Source of the DNA: Armatimonas rosea
GTDB taxonomy: Bacteria; Armatimonadota; Armatimonadia; Armatimonadales; Armatimonadaceae
Reading direction: 5' to 3'
NCBI RefSeq assembly: GCF_014202505.1
Contig: NZ_JACHGW010000001.1
Span: 1-64,000 of the forward strand
Length of the DNA: 64,000 bases
Shown here: positions 23,474 through 48,961 of the stretch, piece by piece
Numbering within the stretch: the stretch's first letter is position 1
Layout of the letters: each line of letters opens with the position of its first letter
Notes under the pieces: model-generated
What the model saw: the letters and a program-made list of their open reading frames with translations, nothing else
Told to the model about the DNA's origin: nothing
Database searches by the model: none
Program-made: the position numbers and the translations under genes

Positions 23474-24034
23474 ATGCTCTATCAAGTTCTGTTCACGGTG
23501 GGAGGGTTAGGACTGCTCGTACAAGCGGTCCTTGGCTCCGCACACCATGATGGCGATGCCACCAGCGACAGCGGACACAGCGGGCACAGCGACCACTCGC
23601 TCCCCGACGACGGTGGGCATTTCTGGCTTCTCTTTCTCTCGCCCCTTCGCCTCTTTGGCTTTAGCCTGGGTATGGGGGGCGCAGGACTGGCTCTGGAGAG
23701 CGCCCTCAAGCTCCCCCCCGTCTTGGTCTTTGGGCTGGCCCTGCTCGCGGGCTGGCTGTTCTACCGCGCCGTGATCAAGCCGCTCATGGCCCTTGTCCTG
23801 CACTTTGCCAGCAAGCCCGCCACGATGCTCTCCGGAGCAGTCGGGCAAGAGGCAACCGCGGACAGTCGCTTCGATGCAACCGGGCGAGGCATTATCACCT
23901 TAGTGGTGGACGGGCACCTTGTGCGCCTGCTGGCAACTCTGGAGGGCTCGCCCGAAGCCGTCGAGGCGGGCGAGAAGCTCGTGGTGATTGCGATCGACAT
24001 GCGGCGCAATACCGCGACCGTGGCAAAGCTATGA
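23474..24034 (+). CDS. NfeD/YqiJ-like membrane protein with acidic His-rich loop
   Basis: The 186-residue protein has three or so membrane helices (about 1-22, 50-75, 80-105) and a C-terminal OB-fold-like domain (about 125-186) that reads VGQEATADSRFDATGRGIITLVVDG. This layout matches NfeD-type partners of flotillins. The first loop (about 24-50) is packed with His and Asp and could bind metal. A ribosome site GGAGGA precedes the start. It overlaps the next, paralogous gene by 4 bases and the flotillin gene follows. Confidence 0.75.
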   Translation: MLYQVLFTVGGLGLLVQAVLGSAHHDGDATSDSGHSGHSDHSLPDDGGHFWLLFLSPLRLFGFSLGMGGAGLALESALKLPPVLVFGLALLAGWLFYRAVIKPLMALVLHFASKPATMLSGAVGQEATADSRFDATGRGIITLVVDGHLVRLLATLEGSPEAVEAGEKLVVIAIDMRRNTATVAKL

Positions 24035-24588
24035 TCTACCAGAGCTTGTTTACGATTGGCCTCCTCGGCATCCTGGTGATGAGCCTCTCGGGGCTACGCG
24101 GCGGACGCGGGGGGCGTGTGCGGGGCCGAGGCCGGGCGCACGCAAGAGGCCGCGGCCGTGGCAAAGGCGCGGTCGGAGGCTCGCTGCTCGATGCACTGGT
24201 GGGCCTGCTCTCCCCGATGAACCTCTTTGCGATCTGCCTCGGAGCCGGGGCGGTCGGGATGCTCACGGGGCGCTGGTGGTGGGCCTTGCTGGGAGGCATT
24301 GTCTTCTGGAAGCTGATCGTAGAACCTCTGGAGCAGCTCGTGATGCGCTTCGCCTCAGAGCCCGCCCAGAACCTAGAAGGGGCCCGCGCCACCGAGGCGA
24401 TTGTCCAGAGCCGGTTTGACTCCCAAGGACAGGGCATGGTGAGCATCACGGTAGATGGTCAGCTCCGGCGCGTCTTGGCCACCCTGGCCGAGACCGAGGA
24501 AAACCCCCGTTCCCTCCAAGTGGGCGAGAGAGTTGTCGTTGTGGATGTAGACCCGAGGCGAAACACCTGCCGTATCGCCCGGCTCTAG
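24031..24588 (+). CDS. NfeD/YqiJ-like membrane protein with basic Arg/Gly loop
   Basis: This 185-residue paralogue of the previous gene has the same order: an N-terminal helix, a loop, two more helices and an OB-fold-like end (EGARATEAIVQSRFDSQGQGMVSITVDG). Its loop (about 22-52) is rich in Arg and Gly, opposite in charge to the neighbour's His/Asp loop, which suggests that the two form a heteromer. The ATG overlaps the previous stop as ATGA. It very likely works with the flotillin encoded next. Confidence 0.75.
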   Translation: MIYQSLFTIGLLGILVMSLSGLRGGRGGRVRGRGRAHARGRGRGKGAVGGSLLDALVGLLSPMNLFAICLGAGAVGMLTGRWWWALLGGIVFWKLIVEPLEQLVMRFASEPAQNLEGARATEAIVQSRFDSQGQGMVSITVDGQLRRVLATLAETEENPRSLQVGERVVVVDVDPRRNTCRIARL

Positions 24589-24621
24589 ATAGGTTTTAAA
24601 GAAAGAAAATAGGAAAGCAAG

Positions 24622-25995
24622 ATGCCTCTAGGGCTCATTATTCCAATTGTCGTGGTGGTTGCCATACTGCTGATTCTTGTCAGTGTGGGCCAGTTTCTTA
24701 CCACGGTCGATGCCGGTACGATCCGCATGGTGACCGGGTGGCGCGGGAGCACGAGTATCTTCCGTGGCCCCGGCAAGGCGTTTGAGATCCCCATCCTCAC
24801 CACGGGGACGACCATTCCCTCCAAGGCGATCAATATCGACCTGGATATCTCCGACCAGACCGCGGACATGGGCAGTGATGGGATTCCCCGCCCGATCAAG
24901 GTGCGCGTGCTTGCCAGCGCCATTGTCTCGGTGGGCGACTCCAACGAGATGATCATGACCGCGGCCAATAAGTTCTTTGCCAAGAACATGGAGGAGCAAA
25001 ACGGGATTCTCTCCGACCTGCTGACCTCCACAGGCCGACGTGCGATCAACCTGCTCAACCACGATGAGCTCTTCTCCGCGGGGGGGACGGGCACGGCGGG
25101 GCCGGAGGAGGACGACCGCCTGGCGATTATCATCAAGGGCGCGTGCTCCCGTGAGCTCCAGGACCTCGGGCTGGTGTTTAACTCGCTCAACATTAAAGAG
25201 GTCCAGTCCGAGGTGGCGGAGGCGCGCCGCCGCCAGTCCGCGGTCGAGGCCAAGGCCAACGCCGATATTGTCGCCGCGGATCAAGAGCGCCGCGCCAAAG
25301 AGGCACAGCTCCAGGCCGAGCAAGCGGTCAACGACAAGCAGCGTGATCTCGAGCGCCGCAAGGCCGAGAACGCCGCCGCGATCTCACAGGCCGAGGCCGA
25401 GCGCCAGAACTCGCTTGCCATCCAGCGTGAGGCCGAGCTCCGCGCCACCCTGATCGCCCAGGCCAACGCCGACCTTGCCAAGGCCCGTGTCGATGCCGAG
25501 GGCGAGGCCATGCGCAAGCGTGTCGCCGCGGAGGCCGATGCCGCCAAGATGAAGATCAACGCCGAGGCAGAGGCCAACCGCGTGACCATCACCGCGGGCG
25601 CTGAGGCAACTCGCACCAAGATCGCCGCTGAGGCAGAGGCAGAGCGCACCCTCAAGATCGCACAGGCCGAGGCAGAGGCCGAAGCGGTGAAGATTCGTGC
25701 GGTCGGGCAGGCGCAGGCCGAGGCGATCCGTGCGGTCAACGAAGCCATTCAGCAGGGCGGCAATGCCTACCTGAGCCTCAAGCAGCTGGAGATGACCCCG
25801 CAGATCACCGCCGAGATCGCCAAGGCGCTCGCACAGGCCAAGATGGTCAATATCAGCGGCGGCGGGGGCGGCGGCAGCGCGGCGGGCGACACAGCCAGCC
25901 AGCTCACCGGAATCGTCCAGAGCCTCCTCGCCACCCGTCTGATCGGCGATCAGCTCCAGTCCGACCAGAAGCAAAACACGACTCCCAGCGAGTAG
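24622..25995 (+). CDS. Flotillin-like SPFH domain protein
   Basis: The 457-residue protein has an N-terminal membrane helix (4-26), an SPFH/band-7 domain (about 30-210) and a long Ala/Glu/Lys-rich coiled coil (about 205-390) with the repeated AEAEA pattern typical of flotillins. It ends in a Gly-rich linker and a short C-terminal tail. Flotillins scaffold membrane microdomains. The two NfeD-like genes upstream are the usual partners, so this is a three-gene microdomain operon. A bidirectional terminator follows. Confidence 0.93.
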   Translation: MPLGLIIPIVVVVAILLILVSVGQFLTTVDAGTIRMVTGWRGSTSIFRGPGKAFEIPILTTGTTIPSKAINIDLDISDQTADMGSDGIPRPIKVRVLASAIVSVGDSNEMIMTAANKFFAKNMEEQNGILSDLLTSTGRRAINLLNHDELFSAGGTGTAGPEEDDRLAIIIKGACSRELQDLGLVFNSLNIKEVQSEVAEARRRQSAVEAKANADIVAADQERRAKEAQLQAEQAVNDKQRDLERRKAENAAAISQAEAERQNSLAIQREAELRATLIAQANADLAKARVDAEGEAMRKRVAAEADAAKMKINAEAEANRVTITAGAEATRTKIAAEAEAERTLKIAQAEAEAEAVKIRAVGQAQAEAIRAVNEAIQQGGNAYLSLKQLEMTPQITAEIAKALAQAKMVNISGGGGGGSAAGDTASQLTGIVQSLLATRLIGDQLQSDQKQNTTPSE

Positions 25996-26003
25996 TCCCT
26001 GCA

Positions 26004-26041
26004 AAAGCTCCCCCGCACGCACCGGCGTGCGGGGGAGCTTT
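26004..26041. terminator. Bidirectional terminator
   Basis: A 17-bp stem (26004-26020 with 26025-26041; core GCTCCCCCGCACGC) has a four-base loop, with A-rich and T-rich flanks on both sides. It separates the flotillin gene (plus) from the subtilisin gene (minus) and would stop both transcripts. Confidence 0.9.
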
Positions 26042-26048
26042 CTTATTT

Positions 26049-27257
26049 CTAGAGGCGGCTGACGGTGGCGGCGATATCGATCATGCCCTTGCCGAGGTTG
26101 CCTTTGTAGGCGGGGTTAAACTTATCCACGGAGCGGGCAGAGCTGAGGATCGCGTCTTTGGTGTTGGCAGGAAGAAACTCGGGGTGGAGGGACTGGACCA
26201 GCGCGGCCTCGCCGGTGACAAAGGGCGCGGCAAACGAGGTGCCGGCCCAGGTGGCGTAGCCGCCGCTCAGGTAGGTGCTGCGAATCTCCACACCGGGCGC
26301 AACCACCGAGACCGAGCGGTTGTAGTTGGAGAACGGGGCCTTGATATTGTTGCTGTCCACGGCCCCCACGACAACCACTTCCTTGCGCGACGACGGGTAC
26401 TGGGTCTCGCTGGTGCCGTTGTTGCCTGCGGCGACAATGCAGGTCATCCCCGCCGCCTCGGCAGCGTCCATGGCATCGTCGATTGTCTTGGAGCGCACCG
26501 ACGAGGTCAGGCTGAGGTTGGCGACCTTTGCGCCGCTCCGCAGTGCGTACTGAATCCCCTTGGCAACATTGAGTGCGCTCCCGAGCCCATCGGCGTTGAG
26601 CACACGAATCGGGAGGATCTGGGCATCGGGGGCGATCCGGGCGATGATCCCGGCGACCATGGTCCCGTGCCCCATCGCGGCGTTGGTTAGCCCGTCGTAG
26701 GACTCACCGGGGAGGTACGCCGGGTTGAGGACGTTCATTCCCAGTAGGCAGTGGCCCTGGAGGAGCGGGTGCGATGTGTCCAGGCCCGTGTCTAACACGG
26801 CAACCAGCACGCCCGCGCCCCGGGTTCGCGCCTGCGCCAGCCCCAGGTTGACCTGTCGTAGCGGGCTGGAGTCGGTGTAGACCCCGAGCGGCGCGGTCCA
26901 CTGGGCCAAAAACCCCGCATCGGCGGCGGCAAAATCGAAGGCAAGATGGACCGGGTCGCCCTTGATCTCCGGGTTGAGCAAGAACGTATCCACCTCGGCA
27001 AAGACCAAGCGCGAGTCGGTGTTGAGGAGCGTGGCAAAGCTCGCCTCGGTCTGGCCTGCGGGCACGGTCAGGCTATAGACCGCAGTCCCCGGCACCTGGT
27101 CGTCCACTTTTACCCGGTAGGTATTGGCGATCGCGCTAATCGAGACCCCTGGCTTGGTCTTCACCAGGACATGCCCTAGGATAGTTCCATCCGCCCACCC
27201 CATGCGCGCGAGGAGCAGGAGAAAACTCAGTGTAAGAATTGCCTTAAGTACGTTCAT
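26049..27257 (-). CDS. Secreted S8 subtilisin-like serine protease
   Basis: The 402-residue protein has a signal peptide (about 1-22), a propeptide-like inhibitor region (24-95) and a catalytic domain with the full triad: D156 (VLDTG), H197 (GHGTMVAG) and S341 (GTSFAAP), plus oxyanion N279. It should act outside the membrane. It is last in a minus-strand run and begins 25 bases after the TPR-CHAT gene ends, so it is very likely cotranscribed with it. The pairing of a secreted subtilisin with a cytosolic CHAT protease suggests one response with two proteolytic arms. Confidence 0.92.
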   Translation of the reverse strand: MNVLKAILTLSFLLLLARMGWADGTILGHVLVKTKPGVSISAIANTYRVKVDDQVPGTAVYSLTVPAGQTEASFATLLNTDSRLVFAEVDTFLLNPEIKGDPVHLAFDFAAADAGFLAQWTAPLGVYTDSSPLRQVNLGLAQARTRGAGVLVAVLDTGLDTSHPLLQGHCLLGMNVLNPAYLPGESYDGLTNAAMGHGTMVAGIIARIAPDAQILPIRVLNADGLGSALNVAKGIQYALRSGAKVANLSLTSSVRSKTIDDAMDAAEAAGMTCIVAAGNNGTSETQYPSSRKEVVVVGAVDSNNIKAPFSNYNRSVSVVAPGVEIRSTYLSGGYATWAGTSFAAPFVTGEAALVQSLHPEFLPANTKDAILSSARSVDKFNPAYKGNLGKGMIDIAATVSRL

Positions 27258-27282
27258 TGTTCTTTACCATTCTGACCGGTGG

Positions 27283-29958
27283 CTACCGCGAGCCGATCAC
27301 ACAAAACGGTGCCCAGTAGTACGGGTGCGGAAGCTCCGCACGTAGCGTTGTCTGTGCACGACGAAGCGCGGCGCTGGGGGTCTCCCCCGCCAGCAGTGCC
27401 TCATAAAACAACCCCATCAGCCGCGCCGTCGCGGTATCGTCGGCGGGCCAGAGGCTCACCGCCAGGGACTTGACCCCTGCGGCCAAGAAGCCCCGCACCA
27501 GCCCAAAGAGCTCGTCACCGGGCGCCACATCCGAGACCCCGGTCCGGCAGGCCGAGAGCGTGACCAGCTCGGCGTCCAGGCGCATCCCATAGAGATCGCG
27601 CGCCAGCAGCCAGCCATCGGCGAAGCGCAGGCCGGAGAAGAGCGGGTTGTCGGCGCGGAAGAGGCCGTGGGTCGCCAGGTGGAGCAGGCGCTTGCCGGGG
27701 GCGTGCTGCAGGAAGGTCGCCAGGGTCGCCTCCGGCCCACAGACCGAGATCGCATCGGGGAGGAGCGCGGTGAGCTGCGCCAGCTCCTGGGCCACCTGGG
27801 CGATTCCGGGCTCGGGAACCCCCAAGAGGAGCAGGCGATTGTCGAGCGCGAGGCGGGGCCGCTGCTGGAGCGTGTGCCAGAGCGAGGCGCTGGGGGCCAG
27901 GGTCAGCTCCCAGCGCTCCAGCGCCGGGCCGGTGCCATCGTGGAGCGCGTGGAACGGCACCCGGTGCAGGGGGCCTTGCGGGACGATCACCAGCTGCGTG
28001 ATACCTGTCAGCGGCCCCAGCGGTCGCAGGAGCTGGTCGTAGAGGAGCCCGAGGACCTGCTGAATCCCCGCTTGTGGCAGCGACTCTCCCCCGTGCTCGG
28101 CATCGGTGGCGGCGGTCTGGAGGTAGAAGCGCAGGCGGCGCAGGTTTGTCTCCAGCGCCGCGGTCGTGCAGAGGTGCGCGACAAAGCGCACGCCCTGGGT
28201 TGTCAGGACAAAGGCCCCCAGCTCTCCCCGGTGCAGGTAGTACTCCACCAAGCACTGCTCTGGACACAGGCTCTGGGCGAGAAGCGCGATAGGAACGGTC
28301 GGGGCGAGGGCACTGGCGCTGGCGGGCTGGCTGAGCTCAGCCTCGCGCAGGAGCTGGCGGTAGGAGTGCTCCAGGCCCTTGAGCTGCCCCGCGCTGGCTA
28401 GAGTCAGGCGGCGCGCCTCGCTGTCGCCTAGGACAATCTCACGGTGGTAGGCCCGGCTGAGCTGTGCCCGGAGCGCGCTCAAGCGGCCCTGGAGCTCTTG
28501 GGGCAGCACGGGGACACTCTCCTCCACCGCGGCCAGAACACGCTCCAGCAGGAGCCGGGAGCGAGAGCGCTCGACTTGCTCCAGTGCCTCGGCGACACTC
28601 TCGGGGGTTCCCTGCTCCAGCAAGAGCGCCACCAGCGCCTCGTAGACCCCGAGCTTGTCTTGTAGGAAGGCTGTGTGGAAGTCCTCCTGTGCCAGGTGGC
28701 CCCGGACGGTCTCCAGCGCCGCGACACTGGCACGCAGGTAGCGCAGGGCGGTGCGGGTCTTTCCTGCGGCCGCGGCATGGTTTCCAAGGGCGAGCAGGGC
28801 CCGGCACTCCAGCCAGCCGCGCCCGGTCTGCTGCGCGGTGCGCCGGACGCGCTGGAGGCGCCCTGGCTGGCTGGGGCCGAGCGTATCCAGCACGAGCGCT
28901 GCCTCCGCCGCCCAGCCTTGGAGGCCTGCCTGAGCGAAGGCGCGCGCCGCGGCTCGGGCCATGCGCCGGGCCTCATCGGCTTGGCCTTGGAGCAAGGCGA
29001 GGCGAGCCCGCAGGAGCTGGGCATGGGCACGCTGGGGCGCGACCTGCTGTTGCTCGAAGATCGCCTCTGCCCGGTTCAGGTCCGCGCTCGTCTCCGGTGC
29101 CAGCGGCTGGGTCGCGGCGCGCCCGAGACGGGCGCGGGCCTCGTCGTAGTCGAGGGGGAGTTCGACAAAGACCGCCAGCGCCTGCTCGTAGCACTCGCGT
29201 GCCTCGGGGGCCAGGTTCAGGGTTCGGTAGACATCGCCCGCATCGATCGCGTAGCGTGCCGCATCGTGGAGCCGCCCCTGCTCCGCAAAGCGCGCCCGCG
29301 CCTGGTTCAGCGCCGCCAGCGCCGCCACCGAGCGCCCGGAGACATGGTGCACAAAGCCGATATTGGCCTCGACTGTCGCGGCCTCGACAAGCTGCTCGGT
29401 CTCTAAGAACGCCGCCCGTGCCTGCTCGTAGAGGGCCAGGGCCTCGTCGGTGCGGTCAAGAAACGTCAGGGCGAGCGCGGTATTGGTCCAGACATGGGGC
29501 AGGAGAAACGCAGCGTTGGCCGAGCTTGCGAAGCGCTCTGCGGCCCGCTCGAAGCAGGCCAGTGCCTCGGCATAGCGGTCCCGGCGGTAGTGCAGGCCCC
29601 CGAGATTGAAGACTACTTTTGCTGCGGCCTCGCTCGCCCCAACAGCCTGGAGCGCGCTCTCCAGCGCCAGTGCCAGCGCCTCGGCCTCGTCGTAGCGGCC
29701 CAGCATCCCCAGAGAGTCGATACTTCCCACCTGCACGAGCGCCGCCTGGGTTGTGTCCCCAAGGGCATAGGCGAGCGCGGCGGCGGCGGAGAAGGCCTCG
29801 ACAGCCTCGGCGTGGCGGGAGAGCGCGCGCAGTGCTTGCCCACGGATGCGGTGGGCAAGCGGTGTCGCCTCCACGCCCAAGGCCTCGTCGGCGAGGCGGA
29901 GCGTCGCCGCAGGGTCCGTGGAGAGGAGCCCCAGCGCCTGCTGTAGCAGCTCGCTCAC
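27283..29958 (-). CDS. TPR-CHAT caspase-like protease
   Basis: The 891-residue cytosolic protein has about 20 TPR-like helices pairs over residues 1-480, a helical linker (480-600) and a C-terminal CHAT domain (about 610-891). The caspase dyad is intact: H764 in LHLATHG and C804 in TLSACRTG. CHAT proteases are activated by partners bound to the TPR part and cut specific proteins; in type III-E CRISPR the TPR-CHAT protein cuts an anti-sigma-like partner. Here the GTG start overlaps the stop of a zinc-finger anti-sigma-like gene (GTGA). That gene product is the obvious first candidate substrate. Confidence 0.92.
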   Translation of the reverse strand: MSELLQQALGLLSTDPAATLRLADEALGVEATPLAHRIRGQALRALSRHAEAVEAFSAAAALAYALGDTTQAALVQVGSIDSLGMLGRYDEAEALALALESALQAVGASEAAAKVVFNLGGLHYRRDRYAEALACFERAAERFASSANAAFLLPHVWTNTALALTFLDRTDEALALYEQARAAFLETEQLVEAATVEANIGFVHHVSGRSVAALAALNQARARFAEQGRLHDAARYAIDAGDVYRTLNLAPEARECYEQALAVFVELPLDYDEARARLGRAATQPLAPETSADLNRAEAIFEQQQVAPQRAHAQLLRARLALLQGQADEARRMARAAARAFAQAGLQGWAAEAALVLDTLGPSQPGRLQRVRRTAQQTGRGWLECRALLALGNHAAAAGKTRTALRYLRASVAALETVRGHLAQEDFHTAFLQDKLGVYEALVALLLEQGTPESVAEALEQVERSRSRLLLERVLAAVEESVPVLPQELQGRLSALRAQLSRAYHREIVLGDSEARRLTLASAGQLKGLEHSYRQLLREAELSQPASASALAPTVPIALLAQSLCPEQCLVEYYLHRGELGAFVLTTQGVRFVAHLCTTAALETNLRRLRFYLQTAATDAEHGGESLPQAGIQQVLGLLYDQLLRPLGPLTGITQLVIVPQGPLHRVPFHALHDGTGPALERWELTLAPSASLWHTLQQRPRLALDNRLLLLGVPEPGIAQVAQELAQLTALLPDAISVCGPEATLATFLQHAPGKRLLHLATHGLFRADNPLFSGLRFADGWLLARDLYGMRLDAELVTLSACRTGVSDVAPGDELFGLVRGFLAAGVKSLAVSLWPADDTATARLMGLFYEALLAGETPSAALRRAQTTLRAELPHPYYWAPFCVIGSR

Positions 29959-30563
29959 ACCCCCTCCAGCGTGAGCTCGGGGACGAGCAGCTCGGTGTTG
30001 GGGAGGCGCACGGCGAGGCGGTAGGTTCCCGCCGCCACGGCCCCAAAGTGGAACTCCTGGTTCTCGGTGTGGGCGGTCTGGGCGTTGCCTTGCGCTCCCA
30101 CCATCAGCACCGCCTCGGGGGAGAGAAAGTCTTGGGTCGCGCGGTCGTAGACCTGACCAATCAGGTACCAGGGCTCCACGGCCTCCACCTCGGTCGCCTC
30201 GGCCCAGAGCCGAATCTCGTACTCGCCCGCATCGTAGCGTAGCTGAATGCCTTCGTCGCTGCCCCGTGCTCCCACGGCCTGCTGCAGGCGGGTATCGCGC
30301 AGGAGCGTGGCGATCCAGAGAGGCCGCTCGCGTGCCTCCAGCCGTGCCGCGGCTAGCTCCCGAAGCGCCCGCCGGGTTGTCTCAGCCAGGCCAGGAGCCG
30401 CTACCTGAGAGAACGCCGCCAGCGTCCGCCCAATCCAAGCCTGCTGCGCCGTGCACGCCGCGCAGCCACTCTCCAGGTGTGCCTGAAGCTCCGCCGCACG
30501 CGCGGGGGTTGTGCGCGTCTCGGCTAGGTCGAGCCAGTCTTGTAGGGAAGGACAGTGTGTCAT
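29955..30563 (-). CDS. Soluble zinc-finger anti-sigma-like protein
   Basis: The 202-residue protein has an N-terminal zinc-binding anti-sigma (zf-HC2-like) motif with C4, H29, C34 and C37 (HLESGCAAC). A middle helical region (45-100) follows, then a C-terminal beta domain (105-202) that reads like an Ig or carboxypeptidase-regulatory fold (GTYRLAVRLP near the end). No membrane helix is present, so the usual membrane signalling route is absent. It is encoded directly before the TPR-CHAT gene and downstream of an ECF sigma gene. Both contexts fit a sigma inhibitor controlled by proteolysis. Confidence 0.75.
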   Translation of the reverse strand: MTHCPSLQDWLDLAETRTTPARAAELQAHLESGCAACTAQQAWIGRTLAAFSQVAAPGLAETTRRALRELAAARLEARERPLWIATLLRDTRLQQAVGARGSDEGIQLRYDAGEYEIRLWAEATEVEAVEPWYLIGQVYDRATQDFLSPEAVLMVGAQGNAQTAHTENQEFHFGAVAAGTYRLAVRLPNTELLVPELTLEGV

Positions 30564-30659
30564 AGGGTTAGTATTCCCGCGGATCGGTTTAAAGAATGCA
30601 TCTCTACCTCGAAGAAATACACTCGGGTCAATTTATTTGTGCGGACCGGGCCTGCACCA

Positions 30660-30705
30660 ACGATCAAGTGATGCAGCTCCCTGAGAAGCTGCACCACTTG
30701 ATCGT
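30660..30705. terminator. Long two-stage hairpin between HAF and anti-sigma genes
   Basis: The outer arms ACGATCAAGTG (30660-30670) and CACTTGATCGT (30695-30705) and the inner arms TGCAGCT (30672-30678) and AGCTGCA (30687-30693) give 18 paired bases with a one- to two-base interruption. It lies 24 bases after the HAF stop on the minus strand. No T tract follows, so it may be a terminator, an attenuator or an RNA stability element. Confidence 0.6.
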
Positions 30706-30728
30706 CTTCCACCAGCCCACCAAGGAGC

Positions 30729-33206
30729 TTAGCGGAAGTTTGCGGTTACCGACGTGTCCTTGGTGATGGTCACCGCGATGGGATTCGTGGTTCCCGAGAC
30801 CGCTCCAGACCAGCCCAGCCAGGGGGAGCCTGAGGCGGGAGTGGCGGTCAGGGTGACCACGGTTCCGGGAGCGTAGGTGCTGGCCGCGGGGCTTGCCGTG
30901 ATGGTTCCCTTGCCGTTGGTCACCAGGGTCAGCTTGTACTTGGTGGTGCTACCACCACCGCCGCCGCCTCCACCGCTGTTTCCTCCCAGACCGGTCTTGA
31001 TGGTAACCGCCATGCTTGCCTGTCCTCCCACCGAGTTCCAGACAGTGACCGTTGTCGGCGGGGTGTCGAGGAGGATCGAGCCCTTGAAGACTCCCAGCTC
31101 AAACTGCATCGTCCCGAAGGGGCCATTGGCATCGCCGTAGGTCAGGACACTGTTGGCGTAGGTGGTGGTTGCCTGCACCTTGAGCATCTTCGTGTCGAGC
31201 ATGTAGTCCGCCTGGGTGATCACGACCGTGGGGATAGGGACCACAAAGACGGTTGCGCTAACTGTGGAGCCGTTGTAGGTCGCCTTCAGGGTGACGCCCT
31301 TGCGGCCTGGAACCACGACCGTGGTCGCGTTGATTGTCGTGCTGTAGGTGCCGTAGGGGACGGTCACCGTTGCGGGAACCTGCAGGGTCGCGGGGTCGCT
31401 GCTGGTGAGGGTAATGACCGCACCGGCCGCCGCACGGGGGAAGTTATTGAGCGTGACCGTCACGGGCATGGTCTGACCGCCCACGGTCTCGGGGCCGCTC
31501 ACACTGCTCAGCGCGACAACGGGGGCAGGGCTCAGGGTAACACTCCCCGAGATCGTGGTTCCTCCCATGGTCGCGGTGATCGGAACCACGGTAGTGGTCG
31601 TGACCGATGCCGTGGTGATGGCAAAGCTCAGGGTCGTATAGCCCTGGAGGAAGTTCAAGGCCGCCGGGACACTCACCAGCGACGGGTTCCCGCTGGTCAG
31701 GGCCACACTCGCTCCGCCCAGCTGGGCAGGAATATTGAGCGAGGCGGTTCCCGTGGTGTTGAAGCCGCCCTCCACCGGGTTGGCCACCAGCGATGCCAGC
31801 TTGACCACGGGGGTGAGGGTCAGTGCGGTCGCGCGGCTCACGGTTCCATCGGTGGCGTAGAGCTTCAGGCTCGCCGGTGTTGTCAGCGTGGCACCATCCG
31901 TCGGTACATTAAAGGTCGCGGTGGTCTCGCCCTCAGGGATGACAATCGAGGCGGGAGTGGGCACCAGAGCGGTCGCGGTGCTCAGGAACTGGATACTCAC
32001 GCCGCCCGCAGGAGCAGGGCTACCAAGTGTCACCTGGCCTTGGAGTGTCGTGCCGGGGGCGACATTGGCCTGGTCCAGGGTGAGCGAGGCCAGCTGCACG
32101 GGAGCCGGAGCGCCCGGTGCAAAGACCACGGCGATGGCACCTGCGGGGATCGCGAGGCCGTAGGGATGCGCTCCGTTGTAGGCGTAGCCCACGACATTGC
32201 CATTGGCGTCGATTCCCGTCGCCACGGCGTTGGTGTAGCCGGCGGGTAGGAACTGGTTCAGGTCGATCACGCTCTCGGGCGTCCCCGTCCACAGCAGGGC
32301 ATGGCGCACCGAGCCCGCCGTGTTGGCGGCCCCGACCCAGCCCTCGCCCACTTGCTTGTCGCCGCTCAGCGATGTGATCTTCGAGTCGGTGTAGGCGCTG
32401 GGGTGCAGATCGACCACGCTGGAGGCGCTGCCGCTCCAGAGAAGCGCGTGCTGGTGGCTGGTTCCCAGGGCGATATAGCCCCAGCCGCCCTGCTGCGTAC
32501 CATTCGTACAGCTCGCCTCCGAGGCATCGTAGCCGACCGGGTGCAGGTCCACGGCGCTCGCGGCGGTCCCTGCCCAGCGCATGGCGTGGCTGGTCGTGTG
32601 GTAGCCCGCCGCATCGCCGTCCGGGTAGGCAAGCGACGAGACATACCCTACCTCCTCGTTGTCGTCGCAGCCGAGGGCGCGGGAGAAGGGATAGGCAGAG
32701 ATCGGGTGGAGGTCCACCGCGCTCGCCGCAGAGTCGTGCCAGCACATGGCATGGGAGGCGGTGACAAAGTAGACCTGGTTCTGGGCATAGCCGACCTGCT
32801 TGTGGTTGCGCACCCCGAGGCAGTAGGAGAACATGTAGCCGCTAGGGTTCAGGTCCGCGTACGAGGACGACGAGCCATTCCAGACCAAGGCATGCACGCC
32901 TCCGCTGAGGCTGGAGTAGCCCCAGCCACCCTGCTGCGTGCCATCGGTGCACATGGCCATGGAGTTGTAGTACAGAGCCGGGTTTAGGTCGATGGAGGTC
33001 AGCGCATTGCTCCCCACCGATACCGCATGCGAGGTGCCACCAACCGTGGCGGCCCCGACCTGTGAGCCGCCCGCGGTCCCACTCAGTCGCCCTGAGGTAC
33101 TGCCCGCAGGGGTGAGATCGTTGTAGTGATACTCTTGCGCAAAGGTCTGTGCCTGCAGAAGCAGCACACTGACCGTCGCAAGAAGGGTTATCAGAGATTT
33201 CTTCAT
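30729..33206 (-). CDS. Large secreted HAF-repeat protein with beta-sandwich and InlB-type repeat
   Basis: The 825-residue protein has a signal peptide (MKKSL... to about 24) and N-terminal HAF repeats (about 25-330) with WSGSASSVVDLHP-type cores. Several beta-sandwich repeats follow (about 350-680; motifs such as ASLTLDQANVAPGTT). The C-terminal domain ends NPIAVTITKDTSVTANFR, typical of the divergent InlB B-repeat. It is likely surface-exposed or secreted. The start at 33206 is chosen for its signal peptide; the longer frame is not credible. It lies between the sigma gene and the anti-sigma/CHAT genes on the same strand. Confidence 0.85.
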   Translation of the reverse strand: MKKSLITLLATVSVLLLQAQTFAQEYHYNDLTPAGSTSGRLSGTAGGSQVGAATVGGTSHAVSVGSNALTSIDLNPALYYNSMAMCTDGTQQGGWGYSSLSGGVHALVWNGSSSSYADLNPSGYMFSYCLGVRNHKQVGYAQNQVYFVTASHAMCWHDSAASAVDLHPISAYPFSRALGCDDNEEVGYVSSLAYPDGDAAGYHTTSHAMRWAGTAASAVDLHPVGYDASEASCTNGTQQGGWGYIALGTSHQHALLWSGSASSVVDLHPSAYTDSKITSLSGDKQVGEGWVGAANTAGSVRHALLWTGTPESVIDLNQFLPAGYTNAVATGIDANGNVVGYAYNGAHPYGLAIPAGAIAVVFAPGAPAPVQLASLTLDQANVAPGTTLQGQVTLGSPAPAGGVSIQFLSTATALVPTPASIVIPEGETTATFNVPTDGATLTTPASLKLYATDGTVSRATALTLTPVVKLASLVANPVEGGFNTTGTASLNIPAQLGGASVALTSGNPSLVSVPAALNFLQGYTTLSFAITTASVTTTTVVPITATMGGTTISGSVTLSPAPVVALSSVSGPETVGGQTMPVTVTLNNFPRAAAGAVITLTSSDPATLQVPATVTVPYGTYSTTINATTVVVPGRKGVTLKATYNGSTVSATVFVVPIPTVVITQADYMLDTKMLKVQATTTYANSVLTYGDANGPFGTMQFELGVFKGSILLDTPPTTVTVWNSVGGQASMAVTIKTGLGGNSGGGGGGGGSTTKYKLTLVTNGKGTITASPAASTYAPGTVVTLTATPASGSPWLGWSGAVSGTTNPIAVTITKDTSVTANFR

Positions 33207-33390
33207 TGTCTCGTTCTTTCGTTTAAGATTGCAGCTGGGGAGGATGAGTCCCGCCTGTACAGAGGGAGCAAGACACGAGAAAATACACGCACAGGAAAAT
33301 TCTTTTTGTCGGAGATTGTGTGATTGCCCTCGACGGTAAACCTCAGGGCTATGGGACGCTTCGCGCCGCCTCGCTTCGCTCGGAATTCTC

Positions 33391-33421
33391 TTGTACCAAC
33401 GAGCCTCTTTGTACCGACGAG
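33391..33421. promoter_or_regulatory. Paired direct repeats upstream of the HAF gene
   Basis: Two copies of TTGTACC[A/G]ACGAG (33391-33403 and 33409-33421), starts 18 bases apart, lie in the 293-base gap 33207-33499 between the sigma gene and the HAF gene. The pair could be an operator or a sigma recognition region for the HAF promoter. Nothing else firm is visible in this gap beyond a short Gly/Cys-rich chance frame. Confidence 0.4.
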
Positions 33422-33499
33422 GCACAAGGCGGCGGCCAAAGGCCTGGATACCCTCTGGGTAAGCCGGACGTTTATCGTTCTGGCGGCTTTATCACACGA

Positions 33500-34087
33500 T
33501 TAGAAGTCCAGGGTATGGAGGATCTTCTTGAGGCGCTCTAAACACCGCGCACGCTGCGGACCGATACTGCCCACGGGGATTCCGAGGCGCTCGGCGATCA
33601 GGGCATAGGCGAGCGGGGGATCGTCTTTGTAGAGCAGGGTGAGGAGCTCACGGCAGCGCTCCAGGAGCTGGGAGAGCGCCTGGCGCACGAGGTGCTGCTC
33701 CTCCAAGGCGATCACACTCGCCTCGGGGAGGGCGGCGTCTTCGGAGTCCGGGAGCTGCTCCAGCGTGCTGGTCTCGGTCTCGGGGAGCTCGGTGAGGCGG
33801 CGGGTGCGCTGGCGCTGCACGAGGCGCCAGGACTCACGCTTGGCCGTGGTCACCAGCCACGCCGAGAGGCGGCTCTCTTGCTGGAGCTTGTCGACATGGT
33901 TCAGGAGCGCGATAAAGACGGTCTGCGCAACATCCTCCACATCGCTGGCCGAGAGCCCCATCCGGCGCGGGATCGCACAGACCAGCACCTCGTAGCGCGC
34001 CACGAGCAGGTCCCACGCCCGCAGCTCGCCCGCGCGGTAGGCACGCAGGAGCTCAGGGTCGGGGGTCTGGGGGGTAAGGCGGCGCAT
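33500..34087 (-). CDS. ECF-type RNA polymerase sigma factor
   Basis: The 195-residue protein has sigma region 2 (about 15-90; DVEDVAQTVFIALLNHVDKL then SAWLVTTAKRESWRLVQRQ) and a region 4 helix-turn-helix (about 135-190; LAYALIAERLGIPVGSIGPQRARCLERLKKIL), joined by an acidic linker. It has no region 1 or 3, as expected for an ECF factor. It would direct polymerase to a dedicated promoter set. The nearby anti-sigma-like, TPR-CHAT, subtilisin and HAF genes on the same strand are the likely regulon or control circuit. Confidence 0.9.
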   Translation of the reverse strand: MRRLTPQTPDPELLRAYRAGELRAWDLLVARYEVLVCAIPRRMGLSASDVEDVAQTVFIALLNHVDKLQQESRLSAWLVTTAKRESWRLVQRQRTRRLTELPETETSTLEQLPDSEDAALPEASVIALEEQHLVRQALSQLLERCRELLTLLYKDDPPLAYALIAERLGIPVGSIGPQRARCLERLKKILHTLDF

Positions 34088-34161
34088 CTCAACACGTTAT
34101 GCCATAAAAAATTTCTTTTCGCGGGTGTATTTTTACGCTCTGGCTCCCTCTCTGTTGGAGC

Positions 34162-35253
34162 ATGAACGTCAAGCAACTCTTCACCACACTTGCCGTGCTC
34201 TCCCTCTCCGTGATGGCGCACGCACAGACCGCCTACCAGGCAATCGACCTCACTCCCTCGGGAGGCACTGCCGCCGCCAATGGGATCTTTGCCGGGCAGG
34301 CAGCCGGGAGCCTGACTTCCGCGGGCAGCTCCCATGCCGCTCTCTTCTCGCAAGACGGCACCACGCTCGATCTGCACCCTAGCTTTCTGAATACAGCAAC
34401 TGTTGTGGGCCGCTCGACCCTGCTGGCACAGGCCGAGGGCTACCAGGTCGGCTCGGGCACGGGCACCGCGACAAACAACCGCCTCGCCGCGCTCTGCTGG
34501 ACGGGCACTGCGGAGAGCGCATCGGTGCTCTTCGTTCCCTTTGACCACTACGGCGCTCAGGCCAACGCGGTCGGGGGCGGCCAGATTGTGGGGCAGGCGC
34601 AGTCCATCACCACCAAGCGCGAGGTGATCTCCTACGGCCCCCAGCACGCCCTGCTCTGGGACGCGGCCTCGGGCGCGGTGACCGACCTGCATCCCGGCGG
34701 AAATGGCACCGTGGCGCTGGGCGTGGGCGGCGGCAAGCAGGTCGGCTACGAGATTAAGAGCGAGGCAAGCGCGGTGGTCTGGTCAGGGAGCGCACGCTCG
34801 ATGGTCTCCCTCCACCCCGCCCCGTACGACGCGTCGGTGGCCAGCGCAACCGATGGCCTCTCCCAAGTGGGCTACGCCGGGGTCGATGTGCAGATCTATG
34901 TAGAGAAGCGGGGACGGCGCGTGCGCTTCAACTACGCAATGCTCTGGAGCGGCACGGCCACCAGCTTCCAGACCCTGGATTCGTCGTCGTTCCGCGACAC
35001 CTACGCCACAGGAGTCTCGGGGAGCGTGATCTGCGGCACCGGGGCGATTGGGATTCCCACGGGGACGATCACGAGCCGCCATGCCATCGCCTGGACCGGT
35101 GCAAGCCACACCCTCACCGACCTGCATCGCCTGCTCCCCGCCGGCTTTGCCAGCTCCACGGCGACGGGGGTCGATGCCCAGGGCAATATCTCCGGGACCG
35201 CGACCCTGCCCACCGGGGAGCGCCACGCGATTGTCTGGGTGCCCGTTCCTTAG
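34162..35253 (+). CDS. Secreted HAF-repeat protein
   Basis: The 363-residue protein has a signal peptide (cleavage after AHA, about 22), then HAF-type repeats through the whole chain, with cores such as HALLWDAASGAVTDLHPGG and LWSGTATSFQTLD. It ends at an unbroken repeat (ERHAIVWVPVP). No anchor is visible, so it is probably secreted or loosely surface-bound. It diverges from the sigma factor gene across 74 bases, so the two may share control. It is the third HAF protein in the window. The function is unknown. Confidence 0.83.
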   Translation: MNVKQLFTTLAVLSLSVMAHAQTAYQAIDLTPSGGTAAANGIFAGQAAGSLTSAGSSHAALFSQDGTTLDLHPSFLNTATVVGRSTLLAQAEGYQVGSGTGTATNNRLAALCWTGTAESASVLFVPFDHYGAQANAVGGGQIVGQAQSITTKREVISYGPQHALLWDAASGAVTDLHPGGNGTVALGVGGGKQVGYEIKSEASAVVWSGSARSMVSLHPAPYDASVASATDGLSQVGYAGVDVQIYVEKRGRRVRFNYAMLWSGTATSFQTLDSSSFRDTYATGVSGSVICGTGAIGIPTGTITSRHAIAWTGASHTLTDLHRLLPAGFASSTATGVDAQGNISGTATLPTGERHAIVWVPVP

Positions 35254-43675: not shown

Positions 43676-44020
43676 CTAGCTAGGCAAGACCACCGTGGTC
43701 GTCCCGACAACCTGCGTGCTTCCCTCGACGGTGGCGTAGACCGTCACCGGCCCCACGTAGCCGGTCGCAAACGGGACAGAGACATAGTTGCCGCCGTTTT
43801 GCACCGTGATATCCATCTCGACAACCCCCGAGGGGATACTGTGCAGATGCGCGACCCCGCTGCCCTCCACCGTGACGACACAAGGCGCGGTAGTGCCAGC
43901 AGTGACCAGTGTCGGTAAGATCACATCGGTCGGCTGAACGTTATCTCCAAGAGCGCCTAGCGCCACGATGAGTAGGCACGCTCCTGAAGCGATAATCTTG
44001 TGAAAACCTGTAACTTTCAT
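43676..44020 (-). CDS. Small secreted protein, unknown
   Basis: The 114-residue protein has a signal peptide (about 1-25, ending ALGALG) and a mature domain of beta-sandwich type (VTAGTTAPCVVTVEG, VEMDITVQNGGNYVSVPFATGYVGPVTVYATVEGS) resembling a single Ig-like module. One Cys is present in the mature part. A ribosome site GAGGA precedes the ATG. It lies between the SARP regulator (44092-47070) and the 118-residue gene, all on the minus strand. Confidence 0.6.
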   Translation of the reverse strand: MKVTGFHKIIASGACLLIVALGALGDNVQPTDVILPTLVTAGTTAPCVVTVEGSGVAHLHSIPSGVVEMDITVQNGGNYVSVPFATGYVGPVTVYATVEGSTQVVGTTTVVLPS

Positions 44021-44091
44021 CTCATTTTCCTCGGCAACGATTTCTATCTGAGTGTCATTTTCATTGACGTAATGAGAGTAACAGCTTTGCT

Positions 44092-47070
44092 TTACAGGCT
44101 TCTTACAAACTCCCTTACAATTTTTCGTAGCTGCTCATCGGTGAGGTCAGGTTGCCCTTGTGTCAGCTCCTCCGCCCAAGCTAGGATCGTCTTCTTCGTC
44201 TCCTCAAGCGAGGTCACTTTTTTCGGGGTGATCTGCAGCTCATGTTGGGCTATAAAACGGGACGAGACAATACCAAACTCAAAACCTAAAACCTGCCTCA
44301 TGCCATATATAGATTCCAAAATATCTCGTAGCTCAGGCGTGGGATTAGCTCTATACAGGATCAAGCAATAACAGATCAGAGCCCCAAGCATCTCAAAGAA
44401 ATTTTTGGAGTGCAAACAGTTTTTAATTACATTCTTATAAAGAATCAAAGCATGCCGTTCATCTCCATAGGTCATTAAACAACCGGCAAGGGCTATGATA
44501 GAGCCATTAACATATGCCCCATTACGTATCCTGCGCGCCAATAAATAGTGCTTACAAGTAAATTTTATCGACTGTTCAATATTATCAATACGAATATAAC
44601 CCATAGCAGCATTATAATAACCTGTTATGAGTCTTTCATAATCACTATTTTTTCGCAGCAAATAAAAGGATCGATTTGAATAAGTTATAAAATTATCAAC
44701 ACCATAGGTACTCACCTCAGCGGCGCTCATATTTGCATATATTATAGCTTCTAGTATCTCATCTCCCCGTTCGCTCATTAGACTTAAAGCCTTTTTTCCC
44801 CAGAGACAAACTTGTTCGTACTCACCACCCGTTAGTAGCTGAGTCATCAGACTGATTTTCAGGCGAACGACTTGCTCGACAGTCACCACCTGGTGTAGTG
44901 ACTCTTTTTGGAGTAGCTCTACAAGGTAGCGTTGCCCCTCTTTATGGTAGACATTTATCCACCAGAAGCGCCCCAGGCTACTCCCCAGCCTATAGGCGAC
45001 CTCCAGACGCTCAGGCTCCTCCCCTTCGAGGCTCCAGCCCATCGCAGCACGCAGGTTCGGTAGGACACTCTCTAAGCGCTCCATCCAAAGCGACTCCTGG
45101 TCTGTACGCCAGTGCCCGCGCGCCTGCTCCGCAAGACCGGCAAAGTACTCCGCGTGTCGGCGACGTCCCTCTTCACGCTCCTGAGGCCCCCACTGCTGGT
45201 CCGCAAACAGCCGCAACGACTCCAGCATGACAAAGCACACCCGATGCTCGCTCAGCTCTGTCGTGAGAAAGGAGCAGTCACACAGCTCTGCAAGGTAGTC
45301 CAGCGCAAGAGGGATTCCGAGTACCTGCTCCACGTCGAGATGGCCAAAGCTCCCCCGGAAGACCGTCAGCCTCGCTAAGAAAACTTTTAGCTCAGGACGC
45401 AGAAGATCAAAACTCCACGAGATACTGGCATAGAGAGAGCGATGTCGCTCCGGCCCGCCCTTTCGAGTTGTCGCCAGGAGCTGAAACCGTGCCTCGACCC
45501 CCTCAAGGATCTGCAGGGGGGACATTACCTGCACGCGTGCCGCTGCCAGCAGCAGCGCAAGCGGGATCCCCTCCAAGACATGGACAATACGAGCAACAAT
45601 CGCCAGGTTACGAGCGTGTAGATGAAAGTCCGGCACGCTCTCACGCGCACGATCCACAAAGAGAGCCACACTGGGCCAGCGCGCCTCAAACTGTGCAGGG
45701 TCTTCTTCCTCCAGAGCAAGAGACTCCACAGGCGGGGTTGGCAAGGGGGCGAGGGGAAAGAGCCGCTCGCCTGGGATGGAGAGCCGGTTCTGCGAGGTTG
45801 CCAGGCACTGGAGAGAGGGAGCACGCTGCAAGAGAGCCCGCAGGCACTCAAGGGCATCGGACTCAAGAAGCTGCTCCATATTATCCAGAACAAGCAGAAC
45901 CCTACCGCTCTGACTGAGAAGCGAGGAGACGAGCTCCAGTAGCTCACCCCCCTGCCCCGAGGGGAGGCGGACCTGCAGGCTACTGGCAATCGCCTGAAGA
46001 AACCCTTGCCCGTGGCGCGCCTCCTGCAAGGAGACAAAGTAGGCACTCCCCCCCTCTTGCTGAACCTGTCGCGCCAGCTCCAGCGCGAGGCGGGTCTTCC
46101 CAATTCCTCCAGGCCCAATCAAGGTGAGAAGGCGTACCTCCTCGCGCTCCAGTAGGCCCTTCAGCTGCGCCAGCTCCTCCTGACGCCCCACAAAATGGGT
46201 GATATCCAGCGGTAGGGCGGACACGCGGCTCAGCGGTGGCGTCTCTCTTAGGGGAGAGGGAGCAGGAGCCGCAAAGACAACTGGAGCTGCCGCAGGCCGA
46301 GGCTTCTTTCGAGTACTCGCCGTGGGATAGAGCGCCAAAGCCGCCTGCGCACGCCGCTCCACCGAAGCAGGCAAGCTCCCCAAGCCATCGTCTTTCCAGC
46401 GCCGCACCGCGTCGTGGTAGGCCTGAGCCGCCTCTTCCATCCGCTTCTCTTCCGTCAGTAGCTGGATCAAGTGCTCCAGAGCGCCTGTATCTTCTGGAAA
46501 ATAGAGCAGCTCCTGGCGACGCCAGTAGATGGCCTCGTCGATATCTCCCTCTTCTTCGGAGAAGCTTCCCAGTCGCCGCACGGCAGCCGTGAAGCGATCC
46601 CTTAGGCGTGCCTGCTCGCTCAGCACCCAGTCATCATAGAAACCGGGGAGAAATGTCCCTCGAAAGAGAGCTAGTGTCTGGCGTAGTGTGTTGATCGCCT
46701 CGGGGGTATTGTCACTGGAAACCCCATCGAGCGCCTGCTCAAACTCCAGCACATCGCTGCTCACAGCCTCGGCTCTGACGCCTAAAGTACGTGGATCGAC
46801 AAGGAGAACCTGTCCCACGAGCTCCGTCTCTAGCTGGCTACGTAGTGATGAGACCGCAACCGAGAGGCTCGCGCGTGCCTTATCGGGATGGGGAGCATCG
46901 TGCCAGAACATCTCGGCCAGCACTTCACGAGAGAGACGCTTCCCTCGGTGGAAGACTAAGTACGCAAATAGGGATGCCGTCTGACGCGTCCGAAAACGAC
47001 TAAAGCTTCCCCCTACTCCCGCTACCTGAAATCCCCCCAGCATCTCGACACGTAACATCGCCTGAGCCAT
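44092..47070 (-). CDS. Second SARP/BTAD-type regulator with NB-ARC ATPase
   Basis: The 992-residue protein has an OmpR-like DNA-binding region (1-95), a full BTAD domain (about 105-245), a proline-rich linker and an NB-ARC STAND ATPase with P-loop GPGGIGKT (319-326) and Walker B VLLVLDN (391-397). The helical repeat C-terminus follows. The last 250 or so codons (44092 to about 44850) are much more AT-rich than the rest. It is divergent from the oxidoreductase/cysteine-rich gene set, whose promoter has 11-bp-spaced repeats, so it probably activates that set. A GGAG ribosome site precedes the ATG. Confidence 0.87.
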   Translation of the reverse strand: MAQAMLRVEMLGGFQVAGVGGSFSRFRTRQTASLFAYLVFHRGKRLSREVLAEMFWHDAPHPDKARASLSVAVSSLRSQLETELVGQVLLVDPRTLGVRAEAVSSDVLEFEQALDGVSSDNTPEAINTLRQTLALFRGTFLPGFYDDWVLSEQARLRDRFTAAVRRLGSFSEEEGDIDEAIYWRRQELLYFPEDTGALEHLIQLLTEEKRMEEAAQAYHDAVRRWKDDGLGSLPASVERRAQAALALYPTASTRKKPRPAAAPVVFAAPAPSPLRETPPLSRVSALPLDITHFVGRQEELAQLKGLLEREEVRLLTLIGPGGIGKTRLALELARQVQQEGGSAYFVSLQEARHGQGFLQAIASSLQVRLPSGQGGELLELVSSLLSQSGRVLLVLDNMEQLLESDALECLRALLQRAPSLQCLATSQNRLSIPGERLFPLAPLPTPPVESLALEEEDPAQFEARWPSVALFVDRARESVPDFHLHARNLAIVARIVHVLEGIPLALLLAAARVQVMSPLQILEGVEARFQLLATTRKGGPERHRSLYASISWSFDLLRPELKVFLARLTVFRGSFGHLDVEQVLGIPLALDYLAELCDCSFLTTELSEHRVCFVMLESLRLFADQQWGPQEREEGRRRHAEYFAGLAEQARGHWRTDQESLWMERLESVLPNLRAAMGWSLEGEEPERLEVAYRLGSSLGRFWWINVYHKEGQRYLVELLQKESLHQVVTVEQVVRLKISLMTQLLTGGEYEQVCLWGKKALSLMSERGDEILEAIIYANMSAAEVSTYGVDNFITYSNRSFYLLRKNSDYERLITGYYNAAMGYIRIDNIEQSIKFTCKHYLLARRIRNGAYVNGSIIALAGCLMTYGDERHALILYKNVIKNCLHSKNFFEMLGALICYCLILYRANPTPELRDILESIYGMRQVLGFEFGIVSSRFIAQHELQITPKKVTSLEETKKTILAWAEELTQGQPDLTDEQLRKIVREFVRSL

Positions 47071-47149
47071 CTACCATCTCCTCATTCCCCCTGCTTACGT
47101 AGATAAGACACCTAGCTTTGTAATTCCTTCTCAAAACGAGGCCTTGGAC

Positions 47150-47183
47150 TTGTAAGCTTTCTGTAATCCAATCTGCCTATACT
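47150..47183 (+). promoter_or_regulatory. SARP-type promoter of the cysteine-rich island
   Basis: Heptamers TTGTAAG (47150-47156) and CTGTAAT (47161-47167) are 11 bp apart, and the second 11-mer ends 6 bp before the -10 TATACT (47178-47183). There is no good -35. A third heptamer TTGTAAT lies at 47118-47124 but off the 11-bp grid. The geometry matches that at 12997-13041 and fits activation by the divergent SARP regulator. Confidence 0.5.
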
Positions 47184-47189
47184 CTCGTC

Positions 47190-48887: not shown

Positions 48888-48902
48888 TCTAGGGGTAGAT
48901 AT

Positions 48903-48938: not shown

Positions 48939-48961
48939 TATAAATTATAAAGGCCACGCAC

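What the first reader, a model, noticed from the sequence alone, without database searches (positions are those of the whole stretch)
26049..34087. Sigma / anti-sigma / TPR-CHAT / subtilisin module resembling a CRISPR-free Craspase
Five genes on one strand read: ECF sigma, HAF secreted protein, soluble zinc-finger anti-sigma-like protein, TPR-CHAT protease with intact H764/C804 dyad, and secreted subtilisin. The anti-sigma and CHAT genes overlap by 4 bases. In type III-E CRISPR systems a TPR-CHAT protease cuts a partner that holds an ECF sigma factor; here the same parts occur with no cas gene. The anti-sigma has no membrane helix, so proteolysis by CHAT is a plausible release step. I infer a stress or conflict circuit in which CHAT activation frees the sigma factor and induces the secreted arm.
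Basis: partly seen in the sequence, partly recalled or inferred. Interest (0 to 1): 0.9.

Follow-up and report, generated by a model that had tools for sequence, protein, structure and literature searches.

The report
CRISPR-free sigma/anti-sigma/TPR-CHAT protease module
A bacterium carries a gene set in which a caspase-like protease sits beside a gene-switch protein (sigma factor), its likely inhibitor and a secreted protease; the same set with its own conserved promoter recurs in several bacterial phyla, so the wiring known from one rare CRISPR system appears to exist widely without CRISPR.

Summary
On the minus strand at 26049-34087 lie an ECF sigma factor, a secreted HAF/InlB-type protein, a soluble zinc-finger protein (X), a TPR-CHAT protease (H764/C804 intact; 4-base overlap with X) and a secreted subtilisin. 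The HAF gene is local; sigma/X/TPR-CHAT/S8 is not: of 25 close CHAT relatives with full flanks, 18 have all three partners, in several phyla, and the own genome holds three modules. X is an anti-sigma-type protein by profile (ChrR, RslA, RsiW, DdvA) fused to a beta-sandwich. The module sigmas form one clade. The TPR-CHAT fold is closest to Csx29 of Craspase, but there is no Cas7-11 and no detectable Csx30 kinship. New here: a conserved promoter element (TGTATTTTTC, 15-16 nt, CTTA-like) precedes X across phyla, and also S8, HAF and other secreted-protein genes. In Acidobacteriota CHAT is coupled to sigma, outside that unit. I favour: CHAT is the sensor-protease, X the anti-sigma, and X plus the secreted arm the sigma regulon. 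Cleavage of X by CHAT is inferred, not shown. It works like the Craspase output arm but is not a Craspase.

The parts
33500..34087 (-). ECF sigma factor (regions 2 and 4; region 4.2 signature GSIGPQRARCL)
   Evidence: module-sigma clade
30729..33206 (-). secreted HAF-type / InlB-B-repeat protein (HAF1); local addition, predicted regulon member
   Evidence: (HAF repeat below cut-off); not present in relatives' modules
29955..30563 (-). X: soluble anti-sigma-type protein, N-terminal 4-helix zinc domain plus C-terminal beta-sandwich; invariant R100 in the joining loop
27283..29958 (-). TPR-CHAT cysteine protease, H764/C804 dyad
26049..27257 (-). secreted S8 subtilisin (D156/H197/S341 triad, N-terminal hydrophobic signal)
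34162..35253 (+). second secreted HAF-type protein (HAF2), divergent, carries the same promoter element and 5' leader GCTCCCTCT as HAF1
30590..30621 (-). putative sigma-dependent promoter of X-CHAT-S8 (TGTATTTCTTC ... ATTCTTTA)
33256..33287 (-). putative sigma-dependent promoter of HAF1 (TGTATTTTCTC ... TCTGTACA)
34126..34157 (+). putative sigma-dependent promoter of HAF2 (TGTATTTTTAC ... CTCTGTTG)
30660..30705 (.). 19-bp hairpin between HAF1 and X (transcription-unit boundary, inferred)
   Evidence: I18
26004..26041 (.). 17-bp perfect hairpin after S8, terminator-like
   Evidence: (I20)

Best explanation
It is a self-contained, protease-gated ECF sigma switch. X is the anti-sigma factor: its N-terminal four-helix (often zinc) domain holds the sigma, and its C-terminal beta-sandwich is a docking or sensing part. 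TPR-CHAT is the sensor-protease: its TPR superhelix reads an unknown intracellular cue and its CHAT domain then cuts X, possibly at the invariant Arg100 in the loop between the two X domains. Freed sigma transcribes from the conserved TGTATTTTTC/CTTA promoter in front of X (negative feedback), in most phyla CHAT and S8 too, and secreted surface genes (S8, HAF proteins, DUF4382/DUF5666 lipoproteins). Shown by computation: conserved set, anti-sigma-type domain by profile, intact invariant dyad, Csx29/separase-like fold, one sigma clade, promoter association. Inferred: sigma-X binding, cleavage of X, the site, the cue, and that this sigma reads the element.
For: Gene set: 21/25 sigma, 22/25 X, 20/25 S8, 18/25 all three near close CHAT relatives with full flanks, against 0/20 with all three for distant CHATs (loci). 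Three modules in the own genome. X profile hits anti-sigma factors ChrR (E 1.5e-4), 3hug chain B (2e-4, RslA), RsiW (1.6e-3) and DdvA (0.013) over its N-terminal part; zf-HC2 in 8 members; full four-ligand zinc set in 20/34, mostly lost as a set elsewhere. X model: four helices then a beta-sandwich, pLDDT 87.5. CHAT H764 and C804 invariant in 35. Best structural matches Csx29 (Z 36, 532 residues) then separase. X Arg100 invariant in 34/34 in a G-V/A-R-S/G loop. All module sigmas fall in one clade (100/97) free of 23 other own ECFs. Promoter: 7 of 20 bipartite matches in 1.16 Mb lie upstream of X against 0.12 expected; a PWM from own sites is significant in other phyla; 16 of 17 near-start intergenic hits in module loci precede X, S8, secreted or glycosyltransferase genes. 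In Acidobacteriota CHAT is coupled to sigma and lies before the promoter, as expected for a sensor rather than an output.
Against: No binding or cleavage data. Two own paralogues, the same-genus module and others have an X without the zinc part or with a shortened N-terminus, so the way sigma is held must vary, or those X are not anti-sigmas. Structure search of the X model recovered only beta-sandwich folds and barely tested the helical part. Craspase cleavage sites are not conserved between orthologues (PMC11106740), so invariance of Arg100 need not mark a cut site; it may be structural. The promoter element is absent or weak in several modules (for example L040, L044, L067), and a sequence element is not proof that this sigma reads it.
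Confidence: 0.55

Rival explanations
1. X is an ordinary zinc or ligand-sensing anti-sigma (RsrA/ChrR style) that lets sigma go by redox or ligand binding; CHAT and S8 are merely sigma-induced effectors that cut other proteins.
For: ChrR and RslA are among the best profile matches of X; the zinc-ligand set is intact in 20/34; in Armatimonadota and Chloroflexota CHAT and S8 lie behind the promoter.
Against: Many X have lost all zinc ligands while the module persists. In Acidobacteriota CHAT is translationally coupled to sigma and lies outside the promoter-controlled unit, which fits poorly with an induced effector.
Confidence: 0.25
2. CHAT controls sigma without cutting X: the TPR array binds X or sigma as a co-regulator, and the protease has another substrate such as a surface or death target.
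For: The TPR part matches peptide-sensing Rap proteins and LGN scaffolds; TPR scaffolds bind regulators.
Against: The catalytic dyad is invariant in 35/35, so proteolysis matters; in the closest structural relative, Csx29, the known substrate is a sigma inhibitor (PMC10028731).
Confidence: 0.12
3. Neighbours by chance or loose genomic hitch-hiking with no shared circuit.
For: Own genome has about 77 ECFs; some CHAT relatives lack sigma (L050, L051, L057, L061).
Against: Recurs across phyla with order changes but the same members, one sigma clade, shared promoter element.
Confidence: 0.02
4. A true type III-E Craspase locus that lost its Cas7-11.
For: Same parts list (ECF sigma, sigma-inhibitor candidate, TPR-CHAT) and best fold match to Csx29.
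Against: No RAMP gene in the genome; no Csx30 match for X; Csx29 model score 20 against cut-off 300; the same set in several phyla argues that the CRISPR-free state is not a local loss.
Confidence: 0.04

Closest known systems
Type III-E Craspase / CASP (Cas7-11, Csx29, Csx30, CASP-sigma; PMC10028731)
   Same: [quoted passage not shown] predicted autoregulated promoters.
   Different: No Cas7-11 or CRISPR; X is a ~200-aa anti-sigma-type domain plus beta-sandwich with no detectable sequence similarity to the 565-aa Csx30; secreted subtilisin is a constant partner; wide distribution.
Regulated proteolysis of anti-sigmas (RseA-DegS/RseP, RsiW)
   Same: Logic: protease destroys an anti-sigma to free an ECF sigma.
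   Different: Those anti-sigmas are membrane proteins cut at the envelope; X is soluble and the protease is a cytoplasmic caspase-fold enzyme encoded beside it.
Soluble zinc anti-sigma factors (RsrA, ChrR)
   Same: N-terminal four-helix domain with H/C...H-x3-4-C-x2-C ligands.
   Different: C-terminal carboxypeptidase-regulatory-like beta-sandwich and CHAT partner; zinc ligands incomplete in 14 of 34.
Metacaspase-sigma70 operons of Myxococcus and relatives (PMC3501461)
   Same: Caspase-fold gene in one operon with a sigma70 gene.
   Different: Metacaspases (Peptidase_C14), not TPR-CHAT; no anti-sigma-type X or S8 mentioned in the passages read.
Separase / CHAT peptidases (clan CD)
   Same: Helical superhelix plus CHAT-type domain, H/C dyad.
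   Different: Eukaryotic separase cuts cohesin; no sigma circuit.

Membership tests
Type III-E CRISPR Craspase | Cas7-11 (gRAMP) effector present | tested here: not met
   PF03787 RAMP search of the whole genome (98% complete): 0 matches, controls ring in 4 genomes
Type III-E CRISPR Craspase | TPR-CHAT is Csx29 by curated model | tested here: not met
   NF041237 20 bits against cut-off 300; but fold match Z 36 to Csx29 and profile E 5.6e-14 over CHAT and the region before it
Type III-E CRISPR Craspase | Csx30 substrate/inhibitor | tested here: not met
   Profile of 34 X proteins against all PDB chains gives anti-sigmas and beta-sandwiches, no Csx30; sequence only, Csx30 fold not compared
Type III-E CRISPR Craspase | ECF sigma factor in the locus | tested here: met
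   not compared with CASP-sigma itself
Type III-E CRISPR Craspase | RNA-triggered cleavage of the sigma inhibitor | not testable with these tools
   needs biochemistry
ECF sigma / anti-sigma pair | sigma with regions 2 and 4 only | tested here: met
   Sigma70_r2 28-94, Sigma70_r4 137-188
ECF sigma / anti-sigma pair | partner carries an anti-sigma (ASD/ZAS) domain | tested here: met
   at family level by sequence profile; window X alone has no zf-HC2 hit in Pfam; several X shortened; fold search of this part inconclusive
ECF sigma / anti-sigma pair | sigma-controlled promoter of its own operon | tested here: inconclusive
   conserved element upstream of X; no expression data
ECF sigma / anti-sigma pair | binding and inhibition | not testable with these tools
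   complex prediction not available here
CHAT peptidase | His-Cys dyad in CHAT fold | tested here: met
Secreted S8 subtilisin | D/H/S triad and export signal | tested here: met

The most novel reading that the evidence does not exclude
Bacteria of several phyla own a caspase-fold signalling cassette in which a TPR-CHAT protease gates an ECF sigma by cutting a soluble anti-sigma. The type III-E Craspase output arm is a late recruit of such a cassette, with RNA recognition by Cas7-11 grafted onto an older stress or surface-remodelling switch.
Probability: 0.35. Interest if true: 0.88.

Novelty: new variant of a known kind. Interest (0 to 1): 0.74.

Why it matters
Craspase is the only case I found described in which a TPR-CHAT protease acts on a sigma-factor inhibitor, and its origin and native output are open. 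A widespread CRISPR-free module with the same parts, its own sigma clade and its own promoter element gives small, ordinary operons in culturable genera (for example Rubrobacter) in which the cue, the cut and the regulon can be tested directly. It would also be a bacterial case of a caspase-fold protease running a transcription programme rather than cell death.

Tried and rejected
(1) Csx29 and CASP-sigma for a tree: searched 395 genomes of the phylum of Desulfoluna with the Csx29 model; nothing rang, controls included, so uninformative. (2) Foldseek and VIA-align of the whole X model: weak, beta-sandwich only (CrdA Z 9.4 best); no anti-sigma factor appeared in the lists, but the helical domain was barely tested, so its identity rests on sequence profiles. 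(3) Sigma70-type promoter scan: nothing above shuffles. (4) The first motif guess GTGTATTTNTNCG with one mismatch: 47 genome hits against 43 for the reversed control, so that loose form carries no signal genome-wide; only the exact form (4 against 0, two in the locus) and the 9-mer read by gene position are informative. The 9-mer itself is not enriched overall (28 against 25 control). (5) Literature: seven searches for CHAT with sigma, anti-sigma, S8 or ECF found only the Craspase papers and the metacaspase survey as relevant; the main ECF reclassification paper is not held, so a prior mention there is possible. (6) Defence idea: no PADLOC hit for sigma, X or CHAT; S8 hits only generic subtilase and weak IetS models.

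Full report
OBSERVATION. The window carries, on the minus strand, an ECF sigma gene (33500-34087), a secreted HAF/InlB-type gene (30729-33206), X (29955-30563), a TPR-CHAT gene (27283-29958) and an S8 gene (26049-27257). X and CHAT overlap by 4 bases. The dyad H764/C804 is present and invariant in 35 relatives. X has no segment hydrophobic enough for a membrane helix in any of 34 members. A second HAF-type gene runs divergently at 34162-35253.

CHANCE. The genome (6.33 Mb) has 8 CHAT genes and about 77 ECF genes above cut-off. Three of the 8 CHATs have a same-strand ECF immediately upstream; a simple count gives about 4e-5. Relatives of X in the own genome sit beside two of those CHATs. The modules on contigs C3 (L018) and C13 (L019), in the same genus (L022) and in another family of the phylum (L023) all read sigma-X-CHAT-S8. 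X-like genes occur in 26 of 291 genomes of the phylum at E up to 1e-3, though the weakest few are probably beta-sandwich matches only.

CONSERVATION ACROSS PHYLA. A scan with the CHAT alignment gave 80 loci. With own profiles of sigma, X, CHAT and S8, 25 loci had a CHAT score of 400 bits or more and 3 kb of flank on both sides. Of these 21 have sigma, 22 X, 20 S8 and 18 all three; of 20 distant CHATs none has all three. The loci were picked by likeness to the window's CHAT, so this is conservation within that branch, not a rate for all CHATs. By record title, modules (some incomplete at contig ends) are in Armatimonadota, Acidobacteriota, Chloroflexota, Rubrobacter, Rubrivivax and Candidatus Eisenbacteria. 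Order varies: sigma-X-CHAT-S8 in most, and sigma-CHAT, then X-S8 in one Acidobacteriota clade, where sigma and CHAT overlap or touch (for example L034, L037, L047).

THE SIGMA. In a maximum-likelihood tree, all 48 module sigmas plus five others from the same kind of loci form one clade (100/97), and none of the 23 other own-genome ECFs included falls inside. All but a few carry a distinctive region 4.2, GSIGPxRxRCL, or GSIGFxRxRCL in the Acidobacteriota clade; none of the other own ECFs checked has the SIGP form.

PROTEIN X. It has four N-terminal helices and a C-terminal beta-sandwich (model pLDDT 87.5). A profile of 34 X proteins finds known anti-sigma factors in the PDB over the N-terminal part: ChrR, the membrane-protein chain of 3hug (RslA, from my own knowledge), RsiW and DdvA. 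Pfam zf-HC2 is matched by 8 members and a carboxypeptidase-regulatory-like domain by 20. The four zinc ligands occur together in 20 of 34 and are mostly lost as a set elsewhere. The two own paralogues and the same-genus copy lack that part, a real limit on calling X an anti-sigma everywhere. One internal charged residue is invariant in all 34, Arg100, in a G-V/A-R-S/G loop of variable length between the two parts. It is my candidate cut site, as inference only.

TPR-CHAT. The model is good (pLDDT 90, pTM 0.88). The best structural matches are Csx29 chains from Craspase (Z 36, rmsd 5.1, 532 residues, 15% identity) and then separases (Z about 30). Few CHAT proteins have solved structures, so 'closest to Csx29' means closest among those. 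By the curated Csx29 model it is not Csx29.

A CONSERVED PROMOTER ELEMENT. GTGTATTTNTNCG occurs exactly four times in the genome (its reversed control never), two of them upstream of X and HAF2; HAF1 has it with one mismatch. Of 28 exact TGTATTTTT in the genome, only a handful lie between genes and close upstream of an ORF, and five of those precede module-linked genes: HAF2, X of C13, the two genes flanking the C13 module, and a DUF4382/DUF5666 lipoprotein about 10 kb from the C3 module. The 9-mer as such is not enriched over its reversed control (28 against 25); the position is the signal. A weight matrix trained only on own-genome sites is significant (p below 0.05 by shuffling) in 13 of 48 regions downstream of sigma, including Chloroflexota, Rubrobacter and Acidobacteriota. 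In the Acidobacteriota clade the element sits between CHAT and X. A bipartite form, TrTAyTTT-(15-19)-yTTA, has 20 matches in 1.16 Mb, 7 of them upstream of X against 0.12 expected. The window and same-genus sites, the other-phyla sites and the Acidobacteriota sites each show a second information peak at the same distance, about 24 nt from the start of box 1. In module loci, 16 of 17 near-start intergenic hits precede X, S8, secreted-protein or glycosyltransferase genes. Sigmas with SIGP go with G before TATTTT and those with SIGF with A; this fits region 4.2 reading box 1, but the SIGF sigmas are one clade, so it is one evolutionary event. I inspected sites while forming the bipartite motif, so its p-value is optimistic; the independent support is the transfer of the own-genome matrix to other phyla.

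MECHANISM. Wherever the element is found in a module, X lies directly behind it, as expected for an anti-sigma in negative feedback. S8 and secreted genes are the output. CHAT is behind the promoter in most phyla but is coupled to sigma before the promoter in the Acidobacteriota clade, so it is not consistently an induced output; that favours CHAT as the upstream sensor-protease. In Craspase, Csx29 cuts Csx30, which binds and inhibits an ECF sigma (PMC10028731). The simplest reading is the same logic with another trigger. Binding, cleavage and the trigger are inferred.

MEMBERSHIP. It works like the Craspase output arm. It is not a Craspase: no RAMP gene in the genome, X does not resemble Csx30 by sequence, and CHAT fails the Csx29 model. 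As an ECF sigma/anti-sigma pair it meets the tests that sequence can give. No prior description was found in the open papers held, with the gap that the main ECF classification paper is not held.

VERDICT. The conserved promoter element and the Acidobacteriota gene order are new evidence for a working circuit.

Noticed in passing
L019 (G000:C13:25000-43000): The C13 module lies on a 45-kb contig with what read by eye as ParB-, MerR- and replication-like genes and a multicopper oxidase, possibly a plasmid.
   Followed up: no
L087, L094, L095, L101, L103: Flavobacteriia CHAT genes have an ECF sigma of a sister clade about 700 bp away on the opposite strand: a second, different CHAT-sigma association.
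   Followed up: partly
L032, L034, L037, L039, L063, gap between X and S8: A second conserved element TTTGTACCATTG (or close) precedes S8 in Acidobacteriota modules.
   Followed up: no
L023:10730-11977 and L035:6456-7727: A similar MurG-like glycosyltransferase (by eye) neighbours the module in Armatimonadota and Chloroflexota; in L035 it carries the module promoter element.
   Followed up: partly
L067: Two sigma-X pairs, one on each side and on opposite strands, flank a single TPR-CHAT gene.
   Followed up: no
L083, L086, L096 (Catellatospora): Sigma and S8 are together on the strand opposite CHAT: a divergent layout of the same parts without a detected X.
   Followed up: no
L016 and L017 (own genome): Other TPR-CHAT genes sit in tandem beside an adenylate-cyclase-like gene, and behind what looks like a BTAD-type regulator, with no sigma: other CHAT contexts.
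   Followed up: no
window 44001-52000: G+C falls to 51-54% against about 65% around it; possible foreign island.
   Followed up: no
window 23474-25995: NfeD-like gene, a related gene and a flotillin/SPFH gene form an operon ending against the S8 terminator hairpin.
   Followed up: no
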